Shown piece after piece: positions 23,665-34,171 of a stretch of 61,373 bases of DNA (within the stretch, counting starts at the first letter, position 1; each line of letters begins with the position of its first letter). The DNA is from SAR324 cluster bacterium. GTDB lineage: Bacteria > SAR324 > NAC60-12. The DNA is taken from assembly GCA_015232315.1 (NCBI GenBank), contig JADFZZ010000031.1, positions 1-61,373 of the forward strand, written 5' to 3'. The notes beneath the pieces were generated by a model. It saw only the letters and a program-made list of their open reading frames with translations, did not search any database and was not told the origin of the DNA. Both the position numbers and the translations under genes were made by a program.

Positions 23665-25569
23665 TTAAAGCTGTGCCACCCTGTGTTCTATGGCTTCCAC
23701 AGACGCTAAAATCATGGATATTTCCCGTTCCTGTTTTCGCCATTTCTCCGGAGACGGGGTTGACAGCGTCATTTGGGAAACAGGCAATGATTGGGAGACC
23801 ACCTGTTCAATCCGTTGATCCCAATGAAACTGGGCAAACCGGCTGATTTCACGAATGGTTTCCCCAGGGTTCTGAATTAAATCCGCATATCGAATCAGGC
23901 GCCAAGAGTCCTGAGGCAGAGCCTGGAGATCATCCAAAATGCAGGAATTAGCGGCGTTCCATTGATACGCCGCGATTTCCACGAGTGAACTGTTTTGCAA
24001 GGCGGACCATCCAGGTGGTAACAGAAAACTCCATTCCTTATACGGCCATCCCGGTAAATCCCGATAAGCGACAAAGCGTCTTGACCTCCAGCATTCCACC
24101 ATACTGCTGATATTTTCTCGTGGATCCCGATACAGATAAATAAAAAGAGCCTCTGGAAATACTGTTTTCAGAAAAGGAATGCGCAATGCGTTTTTAGGGG
24201 TTTTTTCCAGAAACCGGATCTGGAGAGGTCGTTGACTGACTGGAAGGTCAAGATACGCGCAGCCATCTCGATCCTGCAATTCCCGGACGAACCGCTTTTT
24301 AAGAGTCTGGGCAACAGGATGAGGCGCATCCTTTTCACTCAAACGATTTGAACTGAACTCGTGAGATGACGGATGAAGGGCTTCAATACCTTCTATCAGT
24401 TCGTGACTTTCTTCGCCTATTGTCCATAAATTTGGAAAATGCGCTAAGGTATTAAATAAAAGAGTACTCCCGGCTCTAGGTGGAGATACAATAAAGAGCG
24501 GGCGATCAAATTGAGGCTCAGGAAAAATCTCGGTTAGACGTTCCTGTGACATATGAATTTTTTGTTTGCTTTTTAACCTGTTTTTGGTGAGTAGCAGCCT
24601 GCTAAGACGTTTGGGTTCCGGTGGAGACATTGTTAACATGGAACGGATCACCTCCATGGCATATCGACCCTTGCTGTCGGGAGAAAGTATTTTGTTGACG
24701 TTGGGGACAATTTGCTCATTGAAGTCCAGAATGAGATCCTGATAGGCTAATTCTCCCGTAGGATGATGTCCAAATCGGGAAAACGCCTTCTTCCATTGAC
24801 TTCTAAAGTCCTCCATCGACTGAACCAGATTTAAAAACTCCGCTTGAAGCATTTTTGATTGTTCTGCCCCGGAAAGAATATCATCGGTCAATTCACTGAT
24901 TTCCTGCGGTGTCAGTACTTCAAAGCAATAAGGCTCTAAAACAATTGAATTCTGATCCTTGGGGGAAGATGGCATTTCTTGAGCATAGAAATCATTCGGG
25001 CTGTAACCCGGCGCACAGATTTGTTCGGGTTGAAGCAATTTTTTTTCAATCGCCGATGATCCTTTTGTTTCTATAATCAGATGAAAACAGTCTTCTGCGG
25101 ACCCGTTAATCATCCAGTGCTTCATGGTCTGGTCAAAAATCCAGGTATCCCCGGATGCCATGTGGATACTTTTATCATTACAAAATAATTTGACCGTGGG
25201 ATTCGTCACAAGCGGAATATAGAGCGACACCCTTCGAAACCAATGGTAATTGTCAGCTCTCTGGACCGGGGTCTCCGCCCCTGCTTTGAGTCTGGTTACA
25301 CGACAACGGGAAATGGGAATATTGAAGGTGCTTAATATTTGACCAAAGTAAGGACAATGCGCCATGAGGTGCGTCGGTTTGGTTTGACCAGCCAAAGCAA
25401 AATCATGATTGGGGAGCCCCCCGGCTGAGATCAATATGATGGAAGAATCACCAGCGTCTGTGGGAACATGAAAAAACCAATCCGACTCGCTGATTTGAGA
25501 TAATTCTTGTTCCAGTTGTGCGGAATCAAAGCGAAATGGAAGATGATAAAATTCAGTATTCAATTTCAT
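23665..25569 (-). CDS. AspH-like hydroxylase fused to a sulfotransferase
   Basis: The 634-residue protein combines two enzymes. Residues about 1-170 match the aspartyl/asparaginyl beta-hydroxylase fold (2-oxoglutarate/iron): DNYHWFRRVSLYIPLVTNP, then GDTWIFD and H151 with N155. The iron-binding histidines are probably H109 and H151. Residues about 355-600 are a sulfotransferase with the PAPS 5'-phosphosulfate loop (SPPRAGSTLL) and the 3'-phosphate motif YLYRDPRENISSMVECW. The middle linker (about 170-350) is unassigned. A plausible role is hydroxylation followed by sulfation of a metabolite or peptide (inference). The gene is monocistronic and divergent from the porin gene. Confidence 0.85.
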   Translation of the reverse strand: MKLNTEFYHLPFRFDSAQLEQELSQISESDWFFHVPTDAGDSSIILISAGGLPNHDFALAGQTKPTHLMAHCPYFGQILSTFNIPISRCRVTRLKAGAETPVQRADNYHWFRRVSLYIPLVTNPTVKLFCNDKSIHMASGDTWIFDQTMKHWMINGSAEDCFHLIIETKGSSAIEKKLLQPEQICAPGYSPNDFYAQEMPSSPKDQNSIVLEPYCFEVLTPQEISELTDDILSGAEQSKMLQAEFLNLVQSMEDFRSQWKKAFSRFGHHPTGELAYQDLILDFNEQIVPNVNKILSPDSKGRYAMEVIRSMLTMSPPEPKRLSRLLLTKNRLKSKQKIHMSQERLTEIFPEPQFDRPLFIVSPPRAGSTLLFNTLAHFPNLWTIGEESHELIEGIEALHPSSHEFSSNRLSEKDAPHPVAQTLKKRFVRELQDRDGCAYLDLPVSQRPLQIRFLEKTPKNALRIPFLKTVFPEALFIYLYRDPRENISSMVECWRSRRFVAYRDLPGWPYKEWSFLLPPGWSALQNSSLVEIAAYQWNAANSCILDDLQALPQDSWRLIRYADLIQNPGETIREISRFAQFHWDQRIEQVVSQSLPVSQMTLSTPSPEKWRKQEREISMILASVEAIEHRVAQL

Positions 25570-26955: not shown

Positions 26956-27264
26956 CAACCGGGTCGCTATGAAAGACTGATAGACCTACCACTCAGGTAT
27001 GCTTGATGATGCAATTATAGCCATTGCTTCATCAGCAACCTGTGTGATTTGCCCTTGACGTGAGCCTTTGAATCCAGTCATTGATGTTTTCCCTGTTCTG
27101 CCTCATGCAGAAAAAGGCTGTAAGATTTGAGGTGTTTTTCAAAAGAACTTTACAGTTTGTCTTCTCAACAACGGAAGATATCTTTCGTCACTCCTTAAAA
27201 TCCCTCGTCACTCCTCGTTAGAGTTTGTCTTCTCAACATTTCAGCATTTTTGTATCCCACACCA
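26956..27264. other. Intergenic region with direct repeats before the cyclase operon
   Basis: The 309-bp leader of the cyclase operon contains a 17-bp direct repeat AGTTTGTCTTCTCAACA at 27154-27170 and 27222-27238, start to start 68 bp. Between them is a shorter pair TCGTCACTCCT near 27186 and 27204. The operon promoter probably lies here. No ORF or RNA gene is visible. Confidence 0.6.
27154..27238. repeat. 17-bp direct repeats with 68-bp spacing
   Basis: AGTTTGTCTTCTCAACA occurs twice exactly, at 27154-27170 and 27222-27238. The second copy ends 26 bp before the ATG of the first cyclase. The pair could be regulator-binding sites or the footprint of a deletion-prone duplication. Confidence 0.7.
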
Positions 27265-28770
27265 ATGAATACCGCTATCCGCACAAAACTGATTACTATT
27301 GTGATCATATCTGTTTCCCTGGGAGCACTGTTCAACATTGGTTACATGAATTGGCGGGCTACCACACTGGCTTACCAGGCCATCGAAAGAAAAGCGTTGT
27401 CCATGTCGGAATATGCGGCCTTCAACAGTGCGCCCAGTGTGTTGTTCGCCAATGAGGAAGTGCTTCATGAAATGCTGACCGGACTCGAAAGCACCGCGAA
27501 TCTGATCTATGGGGTATTTGTCAATAATATGGGAGAGGTTTTATCAGAATTGCATCAGGACAGGATGAAACTGCCTGAACCTTTGCCCACACCAGATCAC
27601 ACCACCAGTATTCTGGATGATGATCAGATTCATGTCATTTCGCCTATCAGGGACAGTGATGAAGTTGCCGGATTTTTATACCTGAGCCTGTCCTTGGCTG
27701 AAACTCAGGAACAATTGAGAAAGAATCTGGTTGAATCCATTCTGCTGGATGGTGCTCTGGCTGTTCTAATCACGCTGTTGCTGATCTGGAATCTGAACCG
27801 AATGATTCTGAAACCCACGATGCTTCTCTCGTCAAGCGCAAAACTGATCAGCATGGGGAACTACAAAATTGATGAATTGATCACACAAATTCATGGACGG
27901 GATGAAATAGCACAACTGGCCCAGGCCTTTCTGGACATGGATCATTCCATTCTGGAAAGCCAGAACGCCCTGAAAGAACAGAACCGGGAATTGAAAGAAC
28001 GGGATGAACGACTTGAAACAGGGGTTCAATTTCTGTCCAATTATTTGCCCAAACAATTTGTACAGGATCTGCTGAATGAGGATCATACCGACATCCGAAA
28101 TATCCCTGAACGCAAAATGCTCACGGTCTTTTTTTCTGATCTGAAAGGATTTACCAATTTGACCGATCAACTGGAAGCGGAAGATCTGTTCCAACTGCTG
28201 AACAAATATCAAAATTTGATGACCGGCATTATCCATAAATATGATGGAACCCTGGACAAATATCTGGGTGATGGATTGAAAATATTTTTTGGCGCACCGC
28301 ATGGCTACGGCACTCAGGAAGACGCCCTGCGAAGCTGTCTGATGGCGCTGGAGATGCAGTCTGAAATGAAAAATCTGCGAAAAACATGGTTTCGCCAGGG
28401 CATTGAAACCCCGATTGATCTGAGAATCGGCATCCATACCGGCTTCTGCACCGTCGGAAGTTTCGGCTCAGAAGCTCGCATGGATTATACAGCGATTGGT
28501 CCCGCGGTAAATTTCGCGTCACAACTCGAAAGCGAATGTGTGCCCTCCAAAGTTCTGGTGAGTCAGTCTACCTGGAATCATATTCATCCCTTCCTTCAGA
28601 CAGAGCCTCATGAAACCCTTGAAGTGAAAGGCTCAGATGGTGAAAAATCGCCCACCTATCTTTTAGCTGGCATAAAACACGATATTGTGGAACAGACCAC
28701 ACATCATGCCCTGTCAAACAGTCTTTTAACTATCATCAGAACCATGCCGACAACTCTCACTCAGGATTGA
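27265..28770 (+). CDS. Membrane class III nucleotide cyclase (cyclase 1)
   Basis: The 501-residue protein has TM1 (about 8-28), a periplasmic domain (about 30-155), TM2 (about 160-178), a HAMP-like linker and a coiled coil. A class III cyclase domain (about 285-450) follows. Both metal-binding aspartates are present: D292 (FFSDLKGF) and D336 (DKYLGDG). The purine-reading K332 and T409 fit an ATP-type site, and N416 is present. The transition-state arginine is replaced by Q420 (VNFASQLES). The periplasmic segment, with AAFNSAPSVLFANEE, resembles the CHASE8-like sensor of YfiN. The YfiR gene follows 4 bp later, so this cyclase is probably its direct target. A TTG at 27250 is an alternative start. 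Confidence 0.9.
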   Translation: MNTAIRTKLITIVIISVSLGALFNIGYMNWRATTLAYQAIERKALSMSEYAAFNSAPSVLFANEEVLHEMLTGLESTANLIYGVFVNNMGEVLSELHQDRMKLPEPLPTPDHTTSILDDDQIHVISPIRDSDEVAGFLYLSLSLAETQEQLRKNLVESILLDGALAVLITLLLIWNLNRMILKPTMLLSSSAKLISMGNYKIDELITQIHGRDEIAQLAQAFLDMDHSILESQNALKEQNRELKERDERLETGVQFLSNYLPKQFVQDLLNEDHTDIRNIPERKMLTVFFSDLKGFTNLTDQLEAEDLFQLLNKYQNLMTGIIHKYDGTLDKYLGDGLKIFFGAPHGYGTQEDALRSCLMALEMQSEMKNLRKTWFRQGIETPIDLRIGIHTGFCTVGSFGSEARMDYTAIGPAVNFASQLESECVPSKVLVSQSTWNHIHPFLQTEPHETLEVKGSDGEKSPTYLLAGIKHDIVEQTTHHALSNSLLTIIRTMPTTLTQD

Positions 28771-28774
28771 AAAC

Positions 28775-29392
28775 ATGTTGACCGGAAAAAGCCACAAAGC
28801 ACCAACCCTTCTTCGACGAAAACGACTGCTCCTGTCCCTGTTGCTGGCAGAGTTTCTGCTGGTTCCGGGATGGAGCTGGGCGCTTGAAACCATGGACATT
28901 CCTGTCGAATTGCAGATCAAACTTCTGGTTCAGGCTTCAACCTATGACCGTAATCAAAAAAATAAACCACCACCGGGGGTACTGCGTATCGGCGTCATTC
29001 ATACAGAGTCCACTGATTCTCAAAAAGTGGCCGATGAAATAATGGGGCAGTTTGCTGAGAAACACATGACAGTCCGGAAATATGAACTTCAACTCGAATC
29101 AATTACCTTCAAGGACGCGTCCAATCTCAAGGAAGCCACACGTTCCAGAAACATTCACATGTATTACATCGCGCCGGGTAACAGAAATAACCTTTCCACC
29201 ATTATTGATCTGGGCAAAGAGATGAAAATTATGACCATGACCGGAGTGGCGGATTATGTTTATGCCGGAACAACCATAGGGGTTCAGAACAACGGTTCCA
29301 GACCTCAATTTCTGTATAACCAGCAAAGCGCGGAAGAAAACGCTGCTGATTTTGACGCCAATTTTTTAAGAATGGTTAAATTTGTTAAATAA
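28775..29392 (+). CDS. YfiR-family (DUF4154) periplasmic regulator
   Basis: The 205-residue protein carries an N-terminal signal/anchor (about 16-35). It has the DUF4154 pattern: VELQIKLLVQASTYDRN, RIGVIHTESTDSQKVADEI, and a C-terminal part with GTTIGVQNNGSRPQFLYN. In Pseudomonas, YfiR binds the periplasmic domain of the diguanylate cyclase YfiN and inhibits it. YfiR-family genes often neighbour TonB-dependent receptors. Here it sits between cyclase 1 and the receptor, with 4-bp and 18-bp gaps. Regulation of one or both cyclases is therefore a reasonable inference. No cysteine pair typical of disulfide-controlled YfiR is seen. Confidence 0.8.
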   Translation: MLTGKSHKAPTLLRRKRLLLSLLLAEFLLVPGWSWALETMDIPVELQIKLLVQASTYDRNQKNKPPPGVLRIGVIHTESTDSQKVADEIMGQFAEKHMTVRKYELQLESITFKDASNLKEATRSRNIHMYYIAPGNRNNLSTIIDLGKEMKIMTMTGVADYVYAGTTIGVQNNGSRPQFLYNQQSAEENAADFDANFLRMVKFVK

Positions 29393-29410
29393 TCGCCCAC
29401 AGGAAACATT

Positions 29411-31741
29411 ATGAAAACATGGTTTGTTTTGCTACTGTTCCTTGTGATGGTAGCGCCCTTATTGGCCCAACAAGCCGATGAATCCTCTCTGGAGGATTCT
29501 ATCGGATCAGAAGAATTTATCATGGATGAATCTGTCGAAGATCTCCTCAGCACAGAACTGGTCACCATCACTTCCCGTCAGGCACAATCAACCGCGGAAG
29601 TTCCCAATATTGTCACCGTGATTACGGAAGAAGAAATAGCGCAATCAGGCGCCAGAACACTGGGTGACGCCCTGTCGCTGGTGCCCGGAATTCATGTCAG
29701 GCATACCAGTCCCATGGGAATCGTGGATAATACGGTACGATCTGAAGTATTGCTGATGCGGGGGGTGGTGTTCGGTTCAAACCGTCAAATCCTGATCATG
29801 ATTGACGGACAACGGATCAATAACAGCCAATCAGGCGGAACCGATGGCACACTGCCGGCTGTTCCGCTTTACAACGTCAAACGGATTGAGATCATCCGGG
29901 GTCCGGGTTCATCAGGTTACGGCACGGGCGCGTTTGTGGGAGTGGTGAATGTCATCACCAAAACAGGCCGTGATATCCGTGGCGGTTCGATGGTGATCAG
30001 TGCCCACAATCACGGTGGAAAACAGATTGGCCTCTCGGCCGGAAACGCGTATGGCGACTGGAGTTATTCCTTTCATGGCCTTTATTCCCAGGAAGACGGT
30101 CAGGAGCATGAAGCCAAAAAATCCCTGGCAGGAACCCAAACCGTCACAGATGGCGGCATGACTCAGAACGCTGACTTGCGTCTGAATTACCAAAACCTGG
30201 AATTTCACTATCAACAGTATCAGCACGACAATGACCCTTATTTGATGTGGGGAAATCCTAATCCCGCGGATGATTCGAGTTTGTTTGACAGAGGATATAC
30301 CAGGCTTTCGTCCATCAGCTATGAAATTCCTCTGTCTCATGGAACCATTTACGCCTCCATCGGGTACTCGGATTTCAATGCTGAAAACGTGGGTGTGGAA
30401 ATTGAAGCGGAAACTCTGGATTATTTGAGTGCTCAGGGTTCCTTGAGTGGCAATCCCTCATCCTCAGGCGGCCCACCGCCTTCCAGACAGAACCCACCAC
30501 CACAAAACAGCGGTGGAACGGCGCAACCGTCTTCCACACAAGGGGGAACCAGTTCGGGAACACAACCGTCTTCCACACAGGGTAGCACCAATGCGGGATC
30601 CCAACCCGCGGCCGGTACAACCAGCAGTGAAAATTTCCGGAATCCCAGCCGCAAGGGCCGTTTCGTAAACGAAAACCGTCTTGAAAGTAAAATCGACTGG
30701 CTCTACACCGGATTTGAAAACCATGTCTGGGAAATAGGGTTCAGCCAGTCCCGTGAAACTCTGGTGAATTACGGAGTTTTCTACAACGCGCAGTCCGCGG
30801 ATAAAAGCTCGACAGGTTCGTTTGCCGCCAATGACTCGGACACGACCCTGACTCTGCTACAAAACAGAACCAGAGAAATTTCCGGGGTATATGCCCAGGA
30901 CAACTACCGGATGACCACCGACCTTTCTGTATACATCGGTGCCCGCTATGACAGTTACAGTGATTTCGGTAGCACTCTCAACCCCAGATTAGGTATGGTT
31001 TATCGACTCACAGACCAGCAGGTGATCAAACTGCTTTATGGTCAGGCCTTTCGTGCGCCATCGCTGTTGGAGCAGGCTTCCTATGAACCCATGACAGGTT
31101 CCCTGGCTGAATATGATCTGGATCCTGAAATCATCAATGCGACCGAAATCGCCTATCAATATGGAATCTCCAGGCGGATGAAATTCAAAATAAATCTGTT
31201 TAACAATGAAATTCACAACATTATTTTTGCCAATCCCGGGAGTGTCTACAACATGAGTTATATGACCTCTCAGGGTAGCGAAGCCGAACTGCGGATTGAA
31301 TTTCTGCCAGATCATTATTTTATTTTCAACGCGTCCTATGCCACAATCGCCTTTCCTGACCGGGATTCGACCGTCACAAATCAGTTGTTGCCCCAGACAA
31401 CAGCAAATGTGATTTACAATGTACCCCTTTTCCGGGTCATGAACCTGAACACCTCGGTGTCTTATCGAAGCGAACAAAAAGTGGAGGAGTTGGCTCAGGA
31501 AACAATGCTTCCAGCCTATGTCATTGCCAATACGCATCTGACCATCCACCCTTCCGGATTTCGTTCCTGGGAAGCCTTTGTCGGTGTGACCAATCTGACC
31601 AATGAGGAATACTATTCGCCCATCATCAAATTGAGTGAGGAATCTCAACTGAGAAATTTACCTGTGTATACAGCCTATCGGGAAAATCATCTTCAGGAAC
31701 GGGAACGTGAGTTGCAGGTGGGAATGACTCTTAAATTTTGA
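29411..31741 (+). CDS. TonB-dependent outer-membrane receptor
   Basis: The 776-residue protein has a signal peptide (about 1-20), an N-terminal extension, a plug domain (VTVITEEEIAQSGARTLGDALSLVPGI...RGPGSSGYGTGAFVGVVNVITK) and a C-terminal beta-barrel ending in KF. A low-complexity Ser/Gly/Pro/Gln loop at about 350-415 interrupts the barrel. AGGAA before ATG 29411 is the ribosome binding site. The N-terminal segment before the plug contains MDESVEDLLSTELV, similar to TonB-box regions of vitamin B12 and siderophore receptors. The ligand is unknown. Its position inside a cyclase operon suggests that substrate occupancy is signalled to the cytoplasm (inference). Confidence 0.93.
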   Translation: MKTWFVLLLFLVMVAPLLAQQADESSLEDSIGSEEFIMDESVEDLLSTELVTITSRQAQSTAEVPNIVTVITEEEIAQSGARTLGDALSLVPGIHVRHTSPMGIVDNTVRSEVLLMRGVVFGSNRQILIMIDGQRINNSQSGGTDGTLPAVPLYNVKRIEIIRGPGSSGYGTGAFVGVVNVITKTGRDIRGGSMVISAHNHGGKQIGLSAGNAYGDWSYSFHGLYSQEDGQEHEAKKSLAGTQTVTDGGMTQNADLRLNYQNLEFHYQQYQHDNDPYLMWGNPNPADDSSLFDRGYTRLSSISYEIPLSHGTIYASIGYSDFNAENVGVEIEAETLDYLSAQGSLSGNPSSSGGPPPSRQNPPPQNSGGTAQPSSTQGGTSSGTQPSSTQGSTNAGSQPAAGTTSSENFRNPSRKGRFVNENRLESKIDWLYTGFENHVWEIGFSQSRETLVNYGVFYNAQSADKSSTGSFAANDSDTTLTLLQNRTREISGVYAQDNYRMTTDLSVYIGARYDSYSDFGSTLNPRLGMVYRLTDQQVIKLLYGQAFRAPSLLEQASYEPMTGSLAEYDLDPEIINATEIAYQYGISRRMKFKINLFNNEIHNIIFANPGSVYNMSYMTSQGSEAELRIEFLPDHYFIFNASYATIAFPDRDSTVTNQLLPQTTANVIYNVPLFRVMNLNTSVSYRSEQKVEELAQETMLPAYVIANTHLTIHPSGFRSWEAFVGVTNLTNEEYYSPIIKLSEESQLRNLPVYTAYRENHLQERERELQVGMTLKF
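30524..30579 (+). repeat. In-frame 39-bp direct repeat in receptor loop
   Basis: CAACCGTCTTCCACACA occurs at 30524-30540 and 30563-30579, exactly 39 bp apart. It encodes a 13-residue repeat (QPSSTQG...) inside the Ser/Gly/Pro-rich extracellular loop. The spacing keeps frame, so unequal exchange would change loop length without breaking the gene. Confidence 0.8.
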
Positions 31742-31748
31742 GAGCGAA

Positions 31749-33290
31749 ATGCGCGTATCTTCCATTCGTGTCAAACTGGCCGGTATTGTCATCCTGTTCA
31801 TTCTGGCGGGTTCCCTGTTGAACATCCTGTATAATGCCTGGAGCGCATGGTCCCTTGCCCGGAATGCCATCCGGCAAAAAGCCGTTTCCGTAGCGGAATT
31901 TGCCGCGTTGAACAGTTCTCAACCGGTCTGGCTGAAAGATGGCCTCGTTCTGGAAACATCCCTCCAGGGTTTGGAAAAAAATCCTGATCTGGTCTATGCG
32001 TTATTCACGGACGATGCCGGCGAAGTTTTATCCTCGTTGCCTGAAACACAACCCCCTCCATTTCAGGCAGTGGAACAGACAACCGTTCTGTTCCAGAATG
32101 ATCAGATTCAGGTCAGTGTGCCGATTGACCATGAAGCCAACAGGGTCGGCTATTTATTTCTGGGACTCAGCCTGGCAGAAACCAATCAACAATTGATCCA
32201 GGATGTGAAACTGGCGTTGGGCTTCAACCTCAGCATGGGAGTCATCATCATTCTGCTACTGCTGGGAATGTTGCGTAAAATACTGCTACACCCGCTCAGT
32301 TTGCTGTTTTCAAGTGCCAGAAATATTCAGAAAGAACAATTATCCATTCAAGCCCTGACCTCTCAAATCCAGTCAAAAGATGAAATGGGGCAACTGGCAC
32401 GTTCTTTTGAAGAAATGACCGGGGCTCTTGCACAAAGTCGAGCCACAATCCTCCGTCAAAATGAAATGCTGATTGAAAAGAAAAATAGACTGGAATCCAT
32501 GATCCGCTATCTTTCTTCCTACTTGCCCGGTCCTGTCGTGAAACATATCCTGGCTCAAGGGGAACAATCTGGCGGGATTTTATCCAAACGGGCAAAAATA
32601 TCGTTTTTATTTTCGGATTTAAGCGGTTTTGCCCAACTGACCACAGCCCTGGAAGCTTCAGAATTATCCAAACTACTGGAGATATATCAGGATGAAATGA
32701 CCCGGATTGTGAATCGATATGAAGGCACCCTGGTGCAGGTGCTGGGAGATGGCATGATGATCTTTTTTGGCGCACCCCAAACGCATGGTACTCAGGAAGA
32801 TTCATTGCGAACCTGTCTGATGGCGATGGAAATGCAAAATGCCATCAAACCCCTGGAACATCAATTGAGCGCACAGGGCTTGCATATCCCGCTCAACATG
32901 CGCATCGGTATTCATAGCGGATTCAGCACTGTCGGCAGTTTCGGCACAGAATCCCGGCTGAATTACACCGCGCTGGGACTGTCGATCAATCTGGCGTCCC
33001 GCCTGAAAGATGCCTGCCCTCCTGGGGGAGTGCTGGTCAGCCATCCGGTGTGGGCAAATATTACTGATTACATTCAGGTCGCTGAATATAAAACGTTCAC
33101 ACCCAAAGGACTCAAACGACCCATGTTGACTTATCTACTGGAACAACCGCAGAAACACATTGTGGAGCAAGCCATGCGGGATCGTCTCTCCACCACGTTT
33201 CAGGAAATTTGTGAAACATGGGCACAGCATCCTGTCATCCTGGATGTTCAGGCCCAAATTGCCATGAATGTCTCCATTGGAAAACAATGA
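31749..33290 (+). CDS. Membrane class III nucleotide cyclase (cyclase 2)
   Basis: The 513-residue paralogue of cyclase 1 has the same layout: TM1 (about 10-28), periplasmic domain, TM2 (about 160-180), HAMP-like linker, coiled coil and cyclase domain (about 283-445). Metal-binding D290 and D334 are present, as are T407, N414 and the transition-state R418. The purine-reading lysine is replaced by Q330 (LVQVLGDG). Cyclase 1 shows the opposite pattern: lysine kept, arginine lost. ATG 31749 follows the TonB receptor stop by 7 bp, so translation is coupled. Whether ATP or GTP is the substrate cannot be read from the altered pocket. Confidence 0.9.
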   Translation: MRVSSIRVKLAGIVILFILAGSLLNILYNAWSAWSLARNAIRQKAVSVAEFAALNSSQPVWLKDGLVLETSLQGLEKNPDLVYALFTDDAGEVLSSLPETQPPPFQAVEQTTVLFQNDQIQVSVPIDHEANRVGYLFLGLSLAETNQQLIQDVKLALGFNLSMGVIIILLLLGMLRKILLHPLSLLFSSARNIQKEQLSIQALTSQIQSKDEMGQLARSFEEMTGALAQSRATILRQNEMLIEKKNRLESMIRYLSSYLPGPVVKHILAQGEQSGGILSKRAKISFLFSDLSGFAQLTTALEASELSKLLEIYQDEMTRIVNRYEGTLVQVLGDGMMIFFGAPQTHGTQEDSLRTCLMAMEMQNAIKPLEHQLSAQGLHIPLNMRIGIHSGFSTVGSFGTESRLNYTALGLSINLASRLKDACPPGGVLVSHPVWANITDYIQVAEYKTFTPKGLKRPMLTYLLEQPQKHIVEQAMRDRLSTTFQEICETWAQHPVILDVQAQIAMNVSIGKQ

Positions 33291-33316: not shown

Positions 33317-34171
33317 ATGATCGTGAATGCCAACTATCCTATTGTTGAATATAAACAAGGGGACATCGTGTTTGAGGAAGGCGATACAGAAGGACATTTT
33401 GCCTACCTGATCCTTGAAGGTTCCATGGATGTTTATCGAATAATTGACGGCAAAAAAATCATTCTCAACACCTTGCCTCCACGAGAGATCTTCGGGGAGA
33501 TGGCGGTGATTACGGCAGAACCGAGATCCGCGTCCGTTGTAGCGGCAGAAGACTCAAAACTGGTGCGTATTGATGAACGGTTGCTGATGAAAATGCTGGG
33601 GGACAGCGACATGATCGTCAAAGCCATCACCCAGCAATTGATCCAGCGCTTCAAAATGAAAGACAAACAGGTCACCGCCCAACTTTCCGGAAATCCGTTT
33701 ATGAGCTTTTCTCATCTGACACATCTGCTGTATTACAAACATCGTGGTGTTCTGGGTTATGGCGATTTATGTGTCACAGTGAAGGATATCCTTGCGGTGT
33801 CACATCTGGAATTGAACAACATGCTCAAATGGATTCAACAGGCATCGCTCCTTCAGATTGAGACGGTGGACGGGAAAAAAATGATCAAGATCCCGAATCA
33901 CAAGGAATTCATGGCAAATATCCAGCTACTGGAGCAGGAAAAACCCTATAAAACCATGAAACAGGAAGAGCAGTATCTTGATATTTTCACGCTGGCCAAA
34001 GAACTCAAATGCAAACCTCAACAGATTGTCACCCAGATTCAGGCAGGCCGCTTTCCAGTGGATACCCTGTTTTTTCCCAAAGCAAAAACCCTGGAATGGT
34101 ATGTGAGGCACCAAAGTCAGAATGAAGTACAAAGTAACCAGGCTGAATCAGCTTCAACGGTGAAAAAATAA
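33317..34171 (+). CDS. Cyclic-nucleotide-binding transcription regulator (CRP-like)
   Basis: The 284-residue protein has an N-terminal cNMP-binding domain (about 5-125) with a canonical phosphate-binding cassette (FGEMAVITAEPRSASVV). A CRP-type helix-turn-helix follows (about 150-200: TVKDILAVSHLELNNMLKWIQQASLLQIE). An additional C-terminal segment (about 230-275: LAKELKCKPQQIVTQIQAGRFPVDTLFF) resembles an excisionase/MerR-type helix-turn-helix, which is unusual for CRP proteins. GGGAGGATT precedes ATG 33317. It closes the operon and is the natural effector of the two cyclases. Its stop codon lies in the start of the 171-bp composite repeat. Confidence 0.88.
   Translation: MIVNANYPIVEYKQGDIVFEEGDTEGHFAYLILEGSMDVYRIIDGKKIILNTLPPREIFGEMAVITAEPRSASVVAAEDSKLVRIDERLLMKMLGDSDMIVKAITQQLIQRFKMKDKQVTAQLSGNPFMSFSHLTHLLYYKHRGVLGYGDLCVTVKDILAVSHLELNNMLKWIQQASLLQIETVDGKKMIKIPNHKEFMANIQLLEQEKPYKTMKQEEQYLDIFTLAKELKCKPQQIVTQIQAGRFPVDTLFFPKAKTLEWYVRHQSQNEVQSNQAESASTVKK

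What the first reader, a model, noticed from the sequence alone, without database searches (positions are those of the whole stretch)
28120..33010. Paired cyclases with reciprocal loss of catalytic residues
Cyclase 1 keeps purine-reading K332 and N416 but has Q420 where the transition-state arginine should be. Cyclase 2 keeps R418 but has Q330 in place of the lysine. Both keep the two metal-binding aspartates. In class III cyclases these residues come from one chain and the metals from the other, so homodimers and heterodimers would all have an altered site. The pair may be tuned, one may be a regulatory pseudocyclase, or substrate choice may differ.
Basis: partly seen in the sequence, partly recalled or inferred. 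Interest (0 to 1): 0.75.

Follow-up and report, generated by a model that had tools for sequence, protein, structure and literature searches.

The report
Twin cyclases, each missing one residue
A marine SAR324 bacterium carries, in one sensor operon, two related cyclic-nucleotide-making enzymes that have each lost a different, almost invariant catalytic residue; all four known sister copies keep both residues, so this looks like a real specialisation, possibly one impaired regulatory partner and one altered enzyme, but nothing has been assayed.

Summary
In a SAR324 genome, AC1 (27265-28770) has K332, T409, N416, both metal aspartates and Q420 for the transition-state arginine. AC2 (31749-33290) has R418, N414, T407, both aspartates and Q330 for the purine lysine. 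These are derived losses: the other four cyclases of their 6-member clade, and nearly all of about 80 further SAR324 cyclase domains, keep D-K-D-T-N-R. Of 21 positions at least 90% conserved in 75 canonical domains, AC1 breaks one (R420Q); AC2 breaks four (T295A, D329V, K330Q, V413I). The pair lies in a five-gene operon: AC1, YfiR-like protein, TonB-dependent receptor, AC2, cyclic-nucleotide-binding protein. This is a YfiR/TonB-receptor/CHASE8 sensor cluster with a cyclase output; sister loci hold one canonical cyclase. Lysine and arginine sit on the same half-site, so the pair cannot complement each other as sGC alpha/beta do. The only site with both metals and arginine is one where AC2 supplies the arginine half. 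Best reading: AC1 is an impaired, ATP-binding regulatory partner and AC2 the residual, purine-altered catalyst. This is inference; two attenuated enzymes or early decay remain open. One genome, no orthologues, no dimer model, no biochemistry. New variant of a known kind.

The parts
27265..28770 (+). AC1: TM - periplasmic sensor - TM - HAMP - coiled coil - class IIIb cyclase domain; D292/D336, K332, T409, N416 kept, Q420 replaces the transition-state Arg (alternative TTG start at 27250)
   Evidence: AF2 cyclase-domain model pLDDT 95.7, TM 0.97 to 3R5G
28522..28524 (+). CAA codon of Q420 (Arg in all four sister cyclases)
28258..28260 (+). codon of K332, the retained purine lysine of AC1
28775..29392 (+). 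YfiR-like (DUF4154) periplasmic protein
   Evidence: Pfam PF13689 E 2.5e-7; NCBIfam YfiR_like_TOL0243 weak; same neighbour in the four sister cassettes
29411..31741 (+). TonB-dependent outer-membrane receptor
   Evidence: Pfam Plug and barrel; NCBIfam TonB_dep_TOL0244 E 1.5e-36, below cut-off
31749..33290 (+). AC2: TM - CHASE8 - TM - HAMP - coiled coil - class IIIb cyclase domain; D290/D334, T407, N414, R418 kept, Q330 replaces the purine Lys; also D329V and T295A
32736..32738 (+). CAG codon of Q330 (Lys in all four sister cyclases)
33317..34171 (+). Cyclic-nucleotide-binding protein (CNB domain with FGEMAVITAEPRSAS phosphate-binding cassette) plus about 160 aa without a Pfam match; likely receiver of the product
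   Evidence: one orthologue, in another SAR324 genome

Best explanation
This is an output-swapped YfiR/TonB-receptor signalling operon. SHOWN: a periplasmic YfiR-like protein and a TonB receptor are encoded with two CHASE8-type/HAMP membrane sensors whose output domain is a class IIIb cyclase (not the histidine kinase or GGDEF of known clusters), followed by a cyclic-nucleotide-binding protein. Sister cassettes have one fully canonical cyclase; here there are two, each with one lost half-site residue in an otherwise preserved domain. INFERRED: AC1 (R to Q) folds and binds metal-ATP but turns over poorly, acting mainly as a regulatory partner. AC2 (K to Q, Arg kept) is the residual catalyst with altered purine reading. 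Equal coiled-coil length would let them pair through similar sensors. In such a pair, AC1 metals plus the AC2 N/R half make the one chemically competent site, and AC2 metals plus the AC1 half make a nucleotide-binding pseudosite. YfiR-like/TonB-receptor input would set the output, read by the CNB protein.
For: Residues and alignment. Derived state: the six cassette cyclases form a 100% supported clade, four of them canonical. AC1's loss is focal, 1 of 21 near-invariant positions; AC2 4 of 21. AC1 domain folds like CyaB. HAMP-to-metal-motif linker is 77 aa in AC1, AC2 and three sisters but 70 aa in the same-genome paralogue. In the sensor half AC1 is closest to AC2 (39% against 32-33% to the others), while in the cyclase domain AC1-AC2 is the most divergent pair (48%). 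Tight gene spacing (4, 18, 7 and 26 bp). Cluster. CNB motif. Precedents: removing the Lys need not kill activity (Ma1120 K101E kept kcat/Km for ATP 0.82 against 1.25; PMC4215837); sGC works as one complete site plus a pseudosite (PMC3591389).
Against: No biochemistry, expression data or dimer model. One genome only, so neither Q can be shown to be conserved. AC1 and AC2 domain branches are 2-4 times longer than the C25 paralogue's (0.39 and 0.72 against 0.17), which relaxed constraint would also give. Pairing preference is only permissive: homodimers have equal linkers too, and the sensor tree groups AC1 with AC2 at only 61/68. AC1 retains every other catalytic residue and has a new Lys (M339K) near the metal site that might compensate.
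Confidence: 0.4

Rival explanations
1. Both are active but attenuated, separately tuned homodimers: AC1 a low-turnover cyclase (Arg lost, perhaps partly compensated by M339K), AC2 a cyclase with looser purine choice.
For: All other catalytic residues are kept in both. Domains lacking the Lys or the N can be active: Ma1120 K101E, and wild-type Ma1120 lacks the N (PMC4215837). From memory, M. tuberculosis Rv0386 has Gln at the Lys position and makes cAMP. Equal linkers also suit homodimers.
Against: Loss of the transition-state Arg is, from memory of mammalian AC and Rv1625c mutagenesis, strongly damaging to turnover. Arg is one of the most conserved residues in 75 related domains.
Confidence: 0.27
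2. Relaxed selection after duplication: the canonical sister cassette at C25 does the work, and AC1/AC2 are drifting toward loss of catalysis.
For: Longer branches for both cyclase domains; a complete canonical cassette elsewhere in the genome; degenerate class III domains exist in this genome and in relative G005.
Against: All five reading frames are intact; the loss in AC1 is confined to one near-invariant position; metals are kept in both; a CNB gene has been added to the operon; sensor, YfiR and receptor are preserved.
Confidence: 0.15
3. Changed nucleotide choice: AC2 (V-Q-V in place of D-K-Y) makes another cyclic nucleotide, and the CNB protein reads it.
For: Both residues at the purine-reading turn changed together; the Lys position decides ATP against GTP (Glu in guanylyl cyclases; PMC4215837; Cya2 2W01 has Glu); adjacent CNB receiver.
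Against: Gln is not the guanylyl-cyclase Glu; Thr407 is the adenylyl-type partner; the CNB motif does not tell cAMP from cGMP; the PADLOC PycC hits are generic class III similarity and the effector lacks TIR or membrane domains.
Confidence: 0.1
4. AC1 and/or AC2 pair with the canonical C25 paralogue, donating the metal half of one canonical site.
For: Metal halves are intact; the C25 cyclase is the only canonical clade member in the genome and has a related sensor.
Against: The C25 linker is one heptad shorter (70 against 77 aa); it is a different locus with its own YfiR and receptor.
Confidence: 0.06
5. AC1 R420Q is a consensus error in a single metagenome-derived assembly.
For: CAA is one transition from CGA; no second assembly of the species was found.
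Against: Explains only AC1; CGA is not the commonest Arg codon in these genes (18 of 111).
Confidence: 0.02

Closest known systems
P. aeruginosa CyaB catalytic domain (PDB 3R5G) and other class IIIb bacterial adenylyl cyclases
   Same: Fold (TM 0.97) and gap-free alignment; metal Asp, Thr, Asn in place
   Different: CyaB has Lys and Arg; AC1 lacks Arg, AC2 lacks Lys
YfiR-like / TonB receptor / sensor histidine kinase cluster (NCBIfam NF053590, NF053591, NF053592) and the YfiBNR system
   Same: YfiR-like protein, TonB receptor and CHASE8-HAMP sensor encoded together; AC1 and AC2 sensor halves match the HK_near_YfiR_like model
   Different: Output is a class III cyclase, scores are below family cut-offs, and two sensors plus a CNB protein share one YfiR
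Soluble guanylate cyclase alpha/beta and mammalian AC C1/C2
   Same: Class III pair with losses spread over two homologous chains; one possible competent site and one pseudosite
   Different: There the two chains lose opposite halves and together rebuild a full site; here both losses fall on the same half, so no full site is possible (PMC3591389)
Non-canonical single cyclases (Ma1120; Rv0386 from memory)
   Same: Show that missing K or N can be tolerated
   Different: Single proteins, not an operon pair with different losses

Membership tests
Class III (IIIb) nucleotide cyclase | Cyclase homology domain fold | tested here: met
   PF00211 E 2.4e-25 and 1e-20; AC1 model TM 0.97 to 3R5G; AC2 by sequence only
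Class III (IIIb) nucleotide cyclase | Two metal-binding Asp | tested here: met
   D292/D336 and D290/D334
Class III (IIIb) nucleotide cyclase | Purine Lys | tested here: not met
   Met in AC1 (K332), not in AC2 (Q330)
Class III (IIIb) nucleotide cyclase | Transition-state Arg | tested here: not met
   Met in AC2 (R418), not in AC1 (Q420). Both are class III by descent and fold, but neither is a canonical active class III site
Class III (IIIb) nucleotide cyclase | Cyclase activity and dimerisation | not testable with these tools
   needs protein
YfiR / TonB receptor / sensor kinase cluster (NF053590-NF053592) | Adjacent YfiR-like protein and TonB receptor | tested here: met
   conserved in five loci
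YfiR / TonB receptor / sensor kinase cluster (NF053590-NF053592) | Sensor half of the cluster's kinase | tested here: inconclusive
   E 9.6e-16 and 9.8e-14 but 58 and 51 bits against a cut-off of 194; CHASE8 in 5 of 6 relatives
YfiR / TonB receptor / sensor kinase cluster (NF053590-NF053592) | Histidine-kinase output | tested here: not met
   Output is a class III cyclase
sGC-type complementary heterodimeric cyclase | Losses on opposite half-sites so that the pair rebuilds one full site | tested here: not met
   Both losses lie on the K/R half; both metal halves are intact
Pycsar (PycC + CNB effector) | Effector with TIR or membrane domain next to the cyclase | tested here: not met
   CNB protein has only a CNB Pfam match; PADLOC hits cover only the CNB or cyclase domain

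The most novel reading that the evidence does not exclude
A YfiR-gated transmembrane cyclase pair that evolved an asymmetric, C1/C2-like heterodimer by a route unlike the known ones: both losses are on the same half-site, giving one Arg-containing purine-altered site and one ATP-binding pseudosite that works as an allosteric sensor, with a dedicated CNB receiver in the operon.
Probability: 0.2. Interest if true: 0.75.

Novelty: new variant of a known kind. Interest (0 to 1): 0.5.

Why it matters
Heterodimeric class III cyclases are known mainly from eukaryotes, where each half lost the opposite set of residues. An operon pair in a bacterium in which each chain lost a different residue of the same half-site, from a canonical ancestor whose relatives still exist in the same genome, is a small natural experiment on what K and R are worth and on how asymmetric cyclases arise. 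It also adds class III cyclases to the outputs wired to YfiR-like/TonB-receptor sensing. It bears on SAR324 bacteria, whose adenylate cyclases have no paper in the held library.

Tried and rejected
Complementation (sGC-like) was rejected: K and R are on the same half. Realignment to recover K or R was rejected (gap-free alignment to 3R5G). 'Family trait' was rejected: four of four sister cassettes are canonical. Pycsar was rejected. A whole-protein AF2 model of AC1 from six sequences was poor (pLDDT 63) and not used; a 56-row cyclase-domain model was good. Paper searches for non-canonical class III residues, SAR324 cyclases and YfiR/TonB/cyclase returned nothing specific; searches for a natural Arg variant of CyaB found none in the library. 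YfiR had no PDB sequence relative. Orthologues of the two-cyclase operon were not found in the 58 relatives searched, the 52 phylum genomes, or genome contigs.

Full report
WHERE. The window is contig C31 of a 5.25-Mb SAR324-cluster genome (named relatives; own genome). The genome encodes 45 class III cyclase domains. The two of the finding lie in a same-strand run: AC1 27265-28770, YfiR-like protein 28775-29392, TonB-dependent receptor 29411-31741, AC2 31749-33290, CNB protein 33317-34171, with gaps of 4, 18, 7 and 26 bp. Promoter and terminator scans gave only chance-level terminators and no site that splits the run convincingly; co-transcription is inferred.

OBSERVATION. Codon by codon, AC1 has D292, K332, D336, T409, N416 and Q420, and AC2 has D290, Q330, D334, T407, N414 and R418. 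Both align without gaps to P. aeruginosa CyaB through all six positions; a 56-member profile gives the same columns. The AF2 model of the AC1 domain is confident (pLDDT 95.7) and superposes on CyaB at TM 0.97.

DERIVED, NOT FAMILIAL. I fetched the sister loci. In G004 (L061), G010 (L062), G005 (L065) and at a second site in this genome (C25, L064), one sensor-cyclase precedes a YfiR-like protein and a TonB receptor; each of those cyclases is D-K-D-T-N-R. No second cyclase or CNB gene follows the receptor in three of the four; the G010 contig ends soon after. The six cyclases form a 100% supported clade in an 82-domain tree. Almost all other SAR324 domains sampled are canonical too. So R420Q and K330Q are separate, derived changes; whether AC1 and AC2 are each other's closest relatives is unresolved.

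FOCAL OR DECAY. Over 75 canonical domains, 21 positions are at least 90% conserved. AC1 departs at one of them, the catalytic Arg; AC2 at four: T295A, D329V, K330Q, V413I. Branches of both domains are longer than the canonical paralogue's (0.39 and 0.72 against 0.17). AC1 therefore looks like a near-intact domain with one selective lesion, AC2 like a remodelled purine pocket.

DIMER LOGIC. In class III enzymes each site takes metals from one chain and K, T/D, N, R from the other (PMC3591389; established knowledge). AC1/AC1 sites are K-T-N-Q. AC2/AC2 sites are Q-T-N-R. A heterodimer has one of each. Only a site using AC2's half keeps metals plus Arg. Lys loss can be survivable (Ma1120 K101E retained much of its ATP kcat/Km; PMC4215837). 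That Arg loss is worse is from memory. A canonical site could form only with another chain such as the C25 paralogue, but its HAMP-to-cyclase linker is one heptad shorter (70 against 77 aa).

CIRCUIT. The sensor halves match the NCBIfam model for kinases next to YfiR-like proteins and the receptor matches that cluster's receptor model, all below cut-off; CHASE8 is detected in 5 of 6 cassette cyclases. In other phyla, relatives of this YfiR protein neighbour, by eye on the translations, a chemotaxis-receptor-like protein, a hybrid kinase or a TonB receptor. So this is a modular periplasmic input with a cyclase output. The CNB protein has the FGE...PRSAS cassette and PKA/PKG/CRP-type matches, making it the obvious receiver; its C-terminal 160 aa are unassigned.

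VERDICT. I favour AC1 as hypoactive partner and AC2 as residual catalyst (0.4), then two tuned enzymes (0.27), decay (0.15), changed substrate (0.1). Single genome, no assay: interest 0.5.

Noticed in passing
L100 (G005:C47:24500-29200): Two adjacent class III cyclase ORFs in a relative: one canonical (DKDTNR), its neighbour with metal Asp to Arg/Glu and Arg to Lys (RKETNK), i.e. a canonical plus pseudocyclase pair.
   Followed up: partly
L103, L105, L107 (G005): Further class IIIb domains in G005 with substituted metal Asp, Thr/Asn or Arg; pseudocyclases recur in SAR324.
   Followed up: partly
L097:8149-9090 (G005:C19): The only orthologue found of the CNB protein (46% identity) sits directly before a large filamentous-haemagglutinin-like (TpsA) gene and a TpsB-like transporter.
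   Followed up: partly
AC1 residue 339, window 28279-28281: AC1-specific Met-to-Lys change three residues after metal Asp336; it could place a new positive charge near the triphosphate.
   Followed up: no
23665-25569 (-): Fusion of an aspartyl/asparaginyl beta-hydroxylase-like domain with a sulfotransferase domain.
   Followed up: no
L116 (G291), L118 (G130): YfiR-like relatives in other phyla appear to be followed by a chemotaxis-receptor-like protein and a hybrid kinase, suggesting YfiR-like proteins are paired with many output types.
   Followed up: partly
L064:9116-10591 (G000:C25): The canonical paralogue's signalling coiled coil lacks exactly seven residues (one heptad) relative to AC1, AC2 and the other sisters.
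   Followed up: yes
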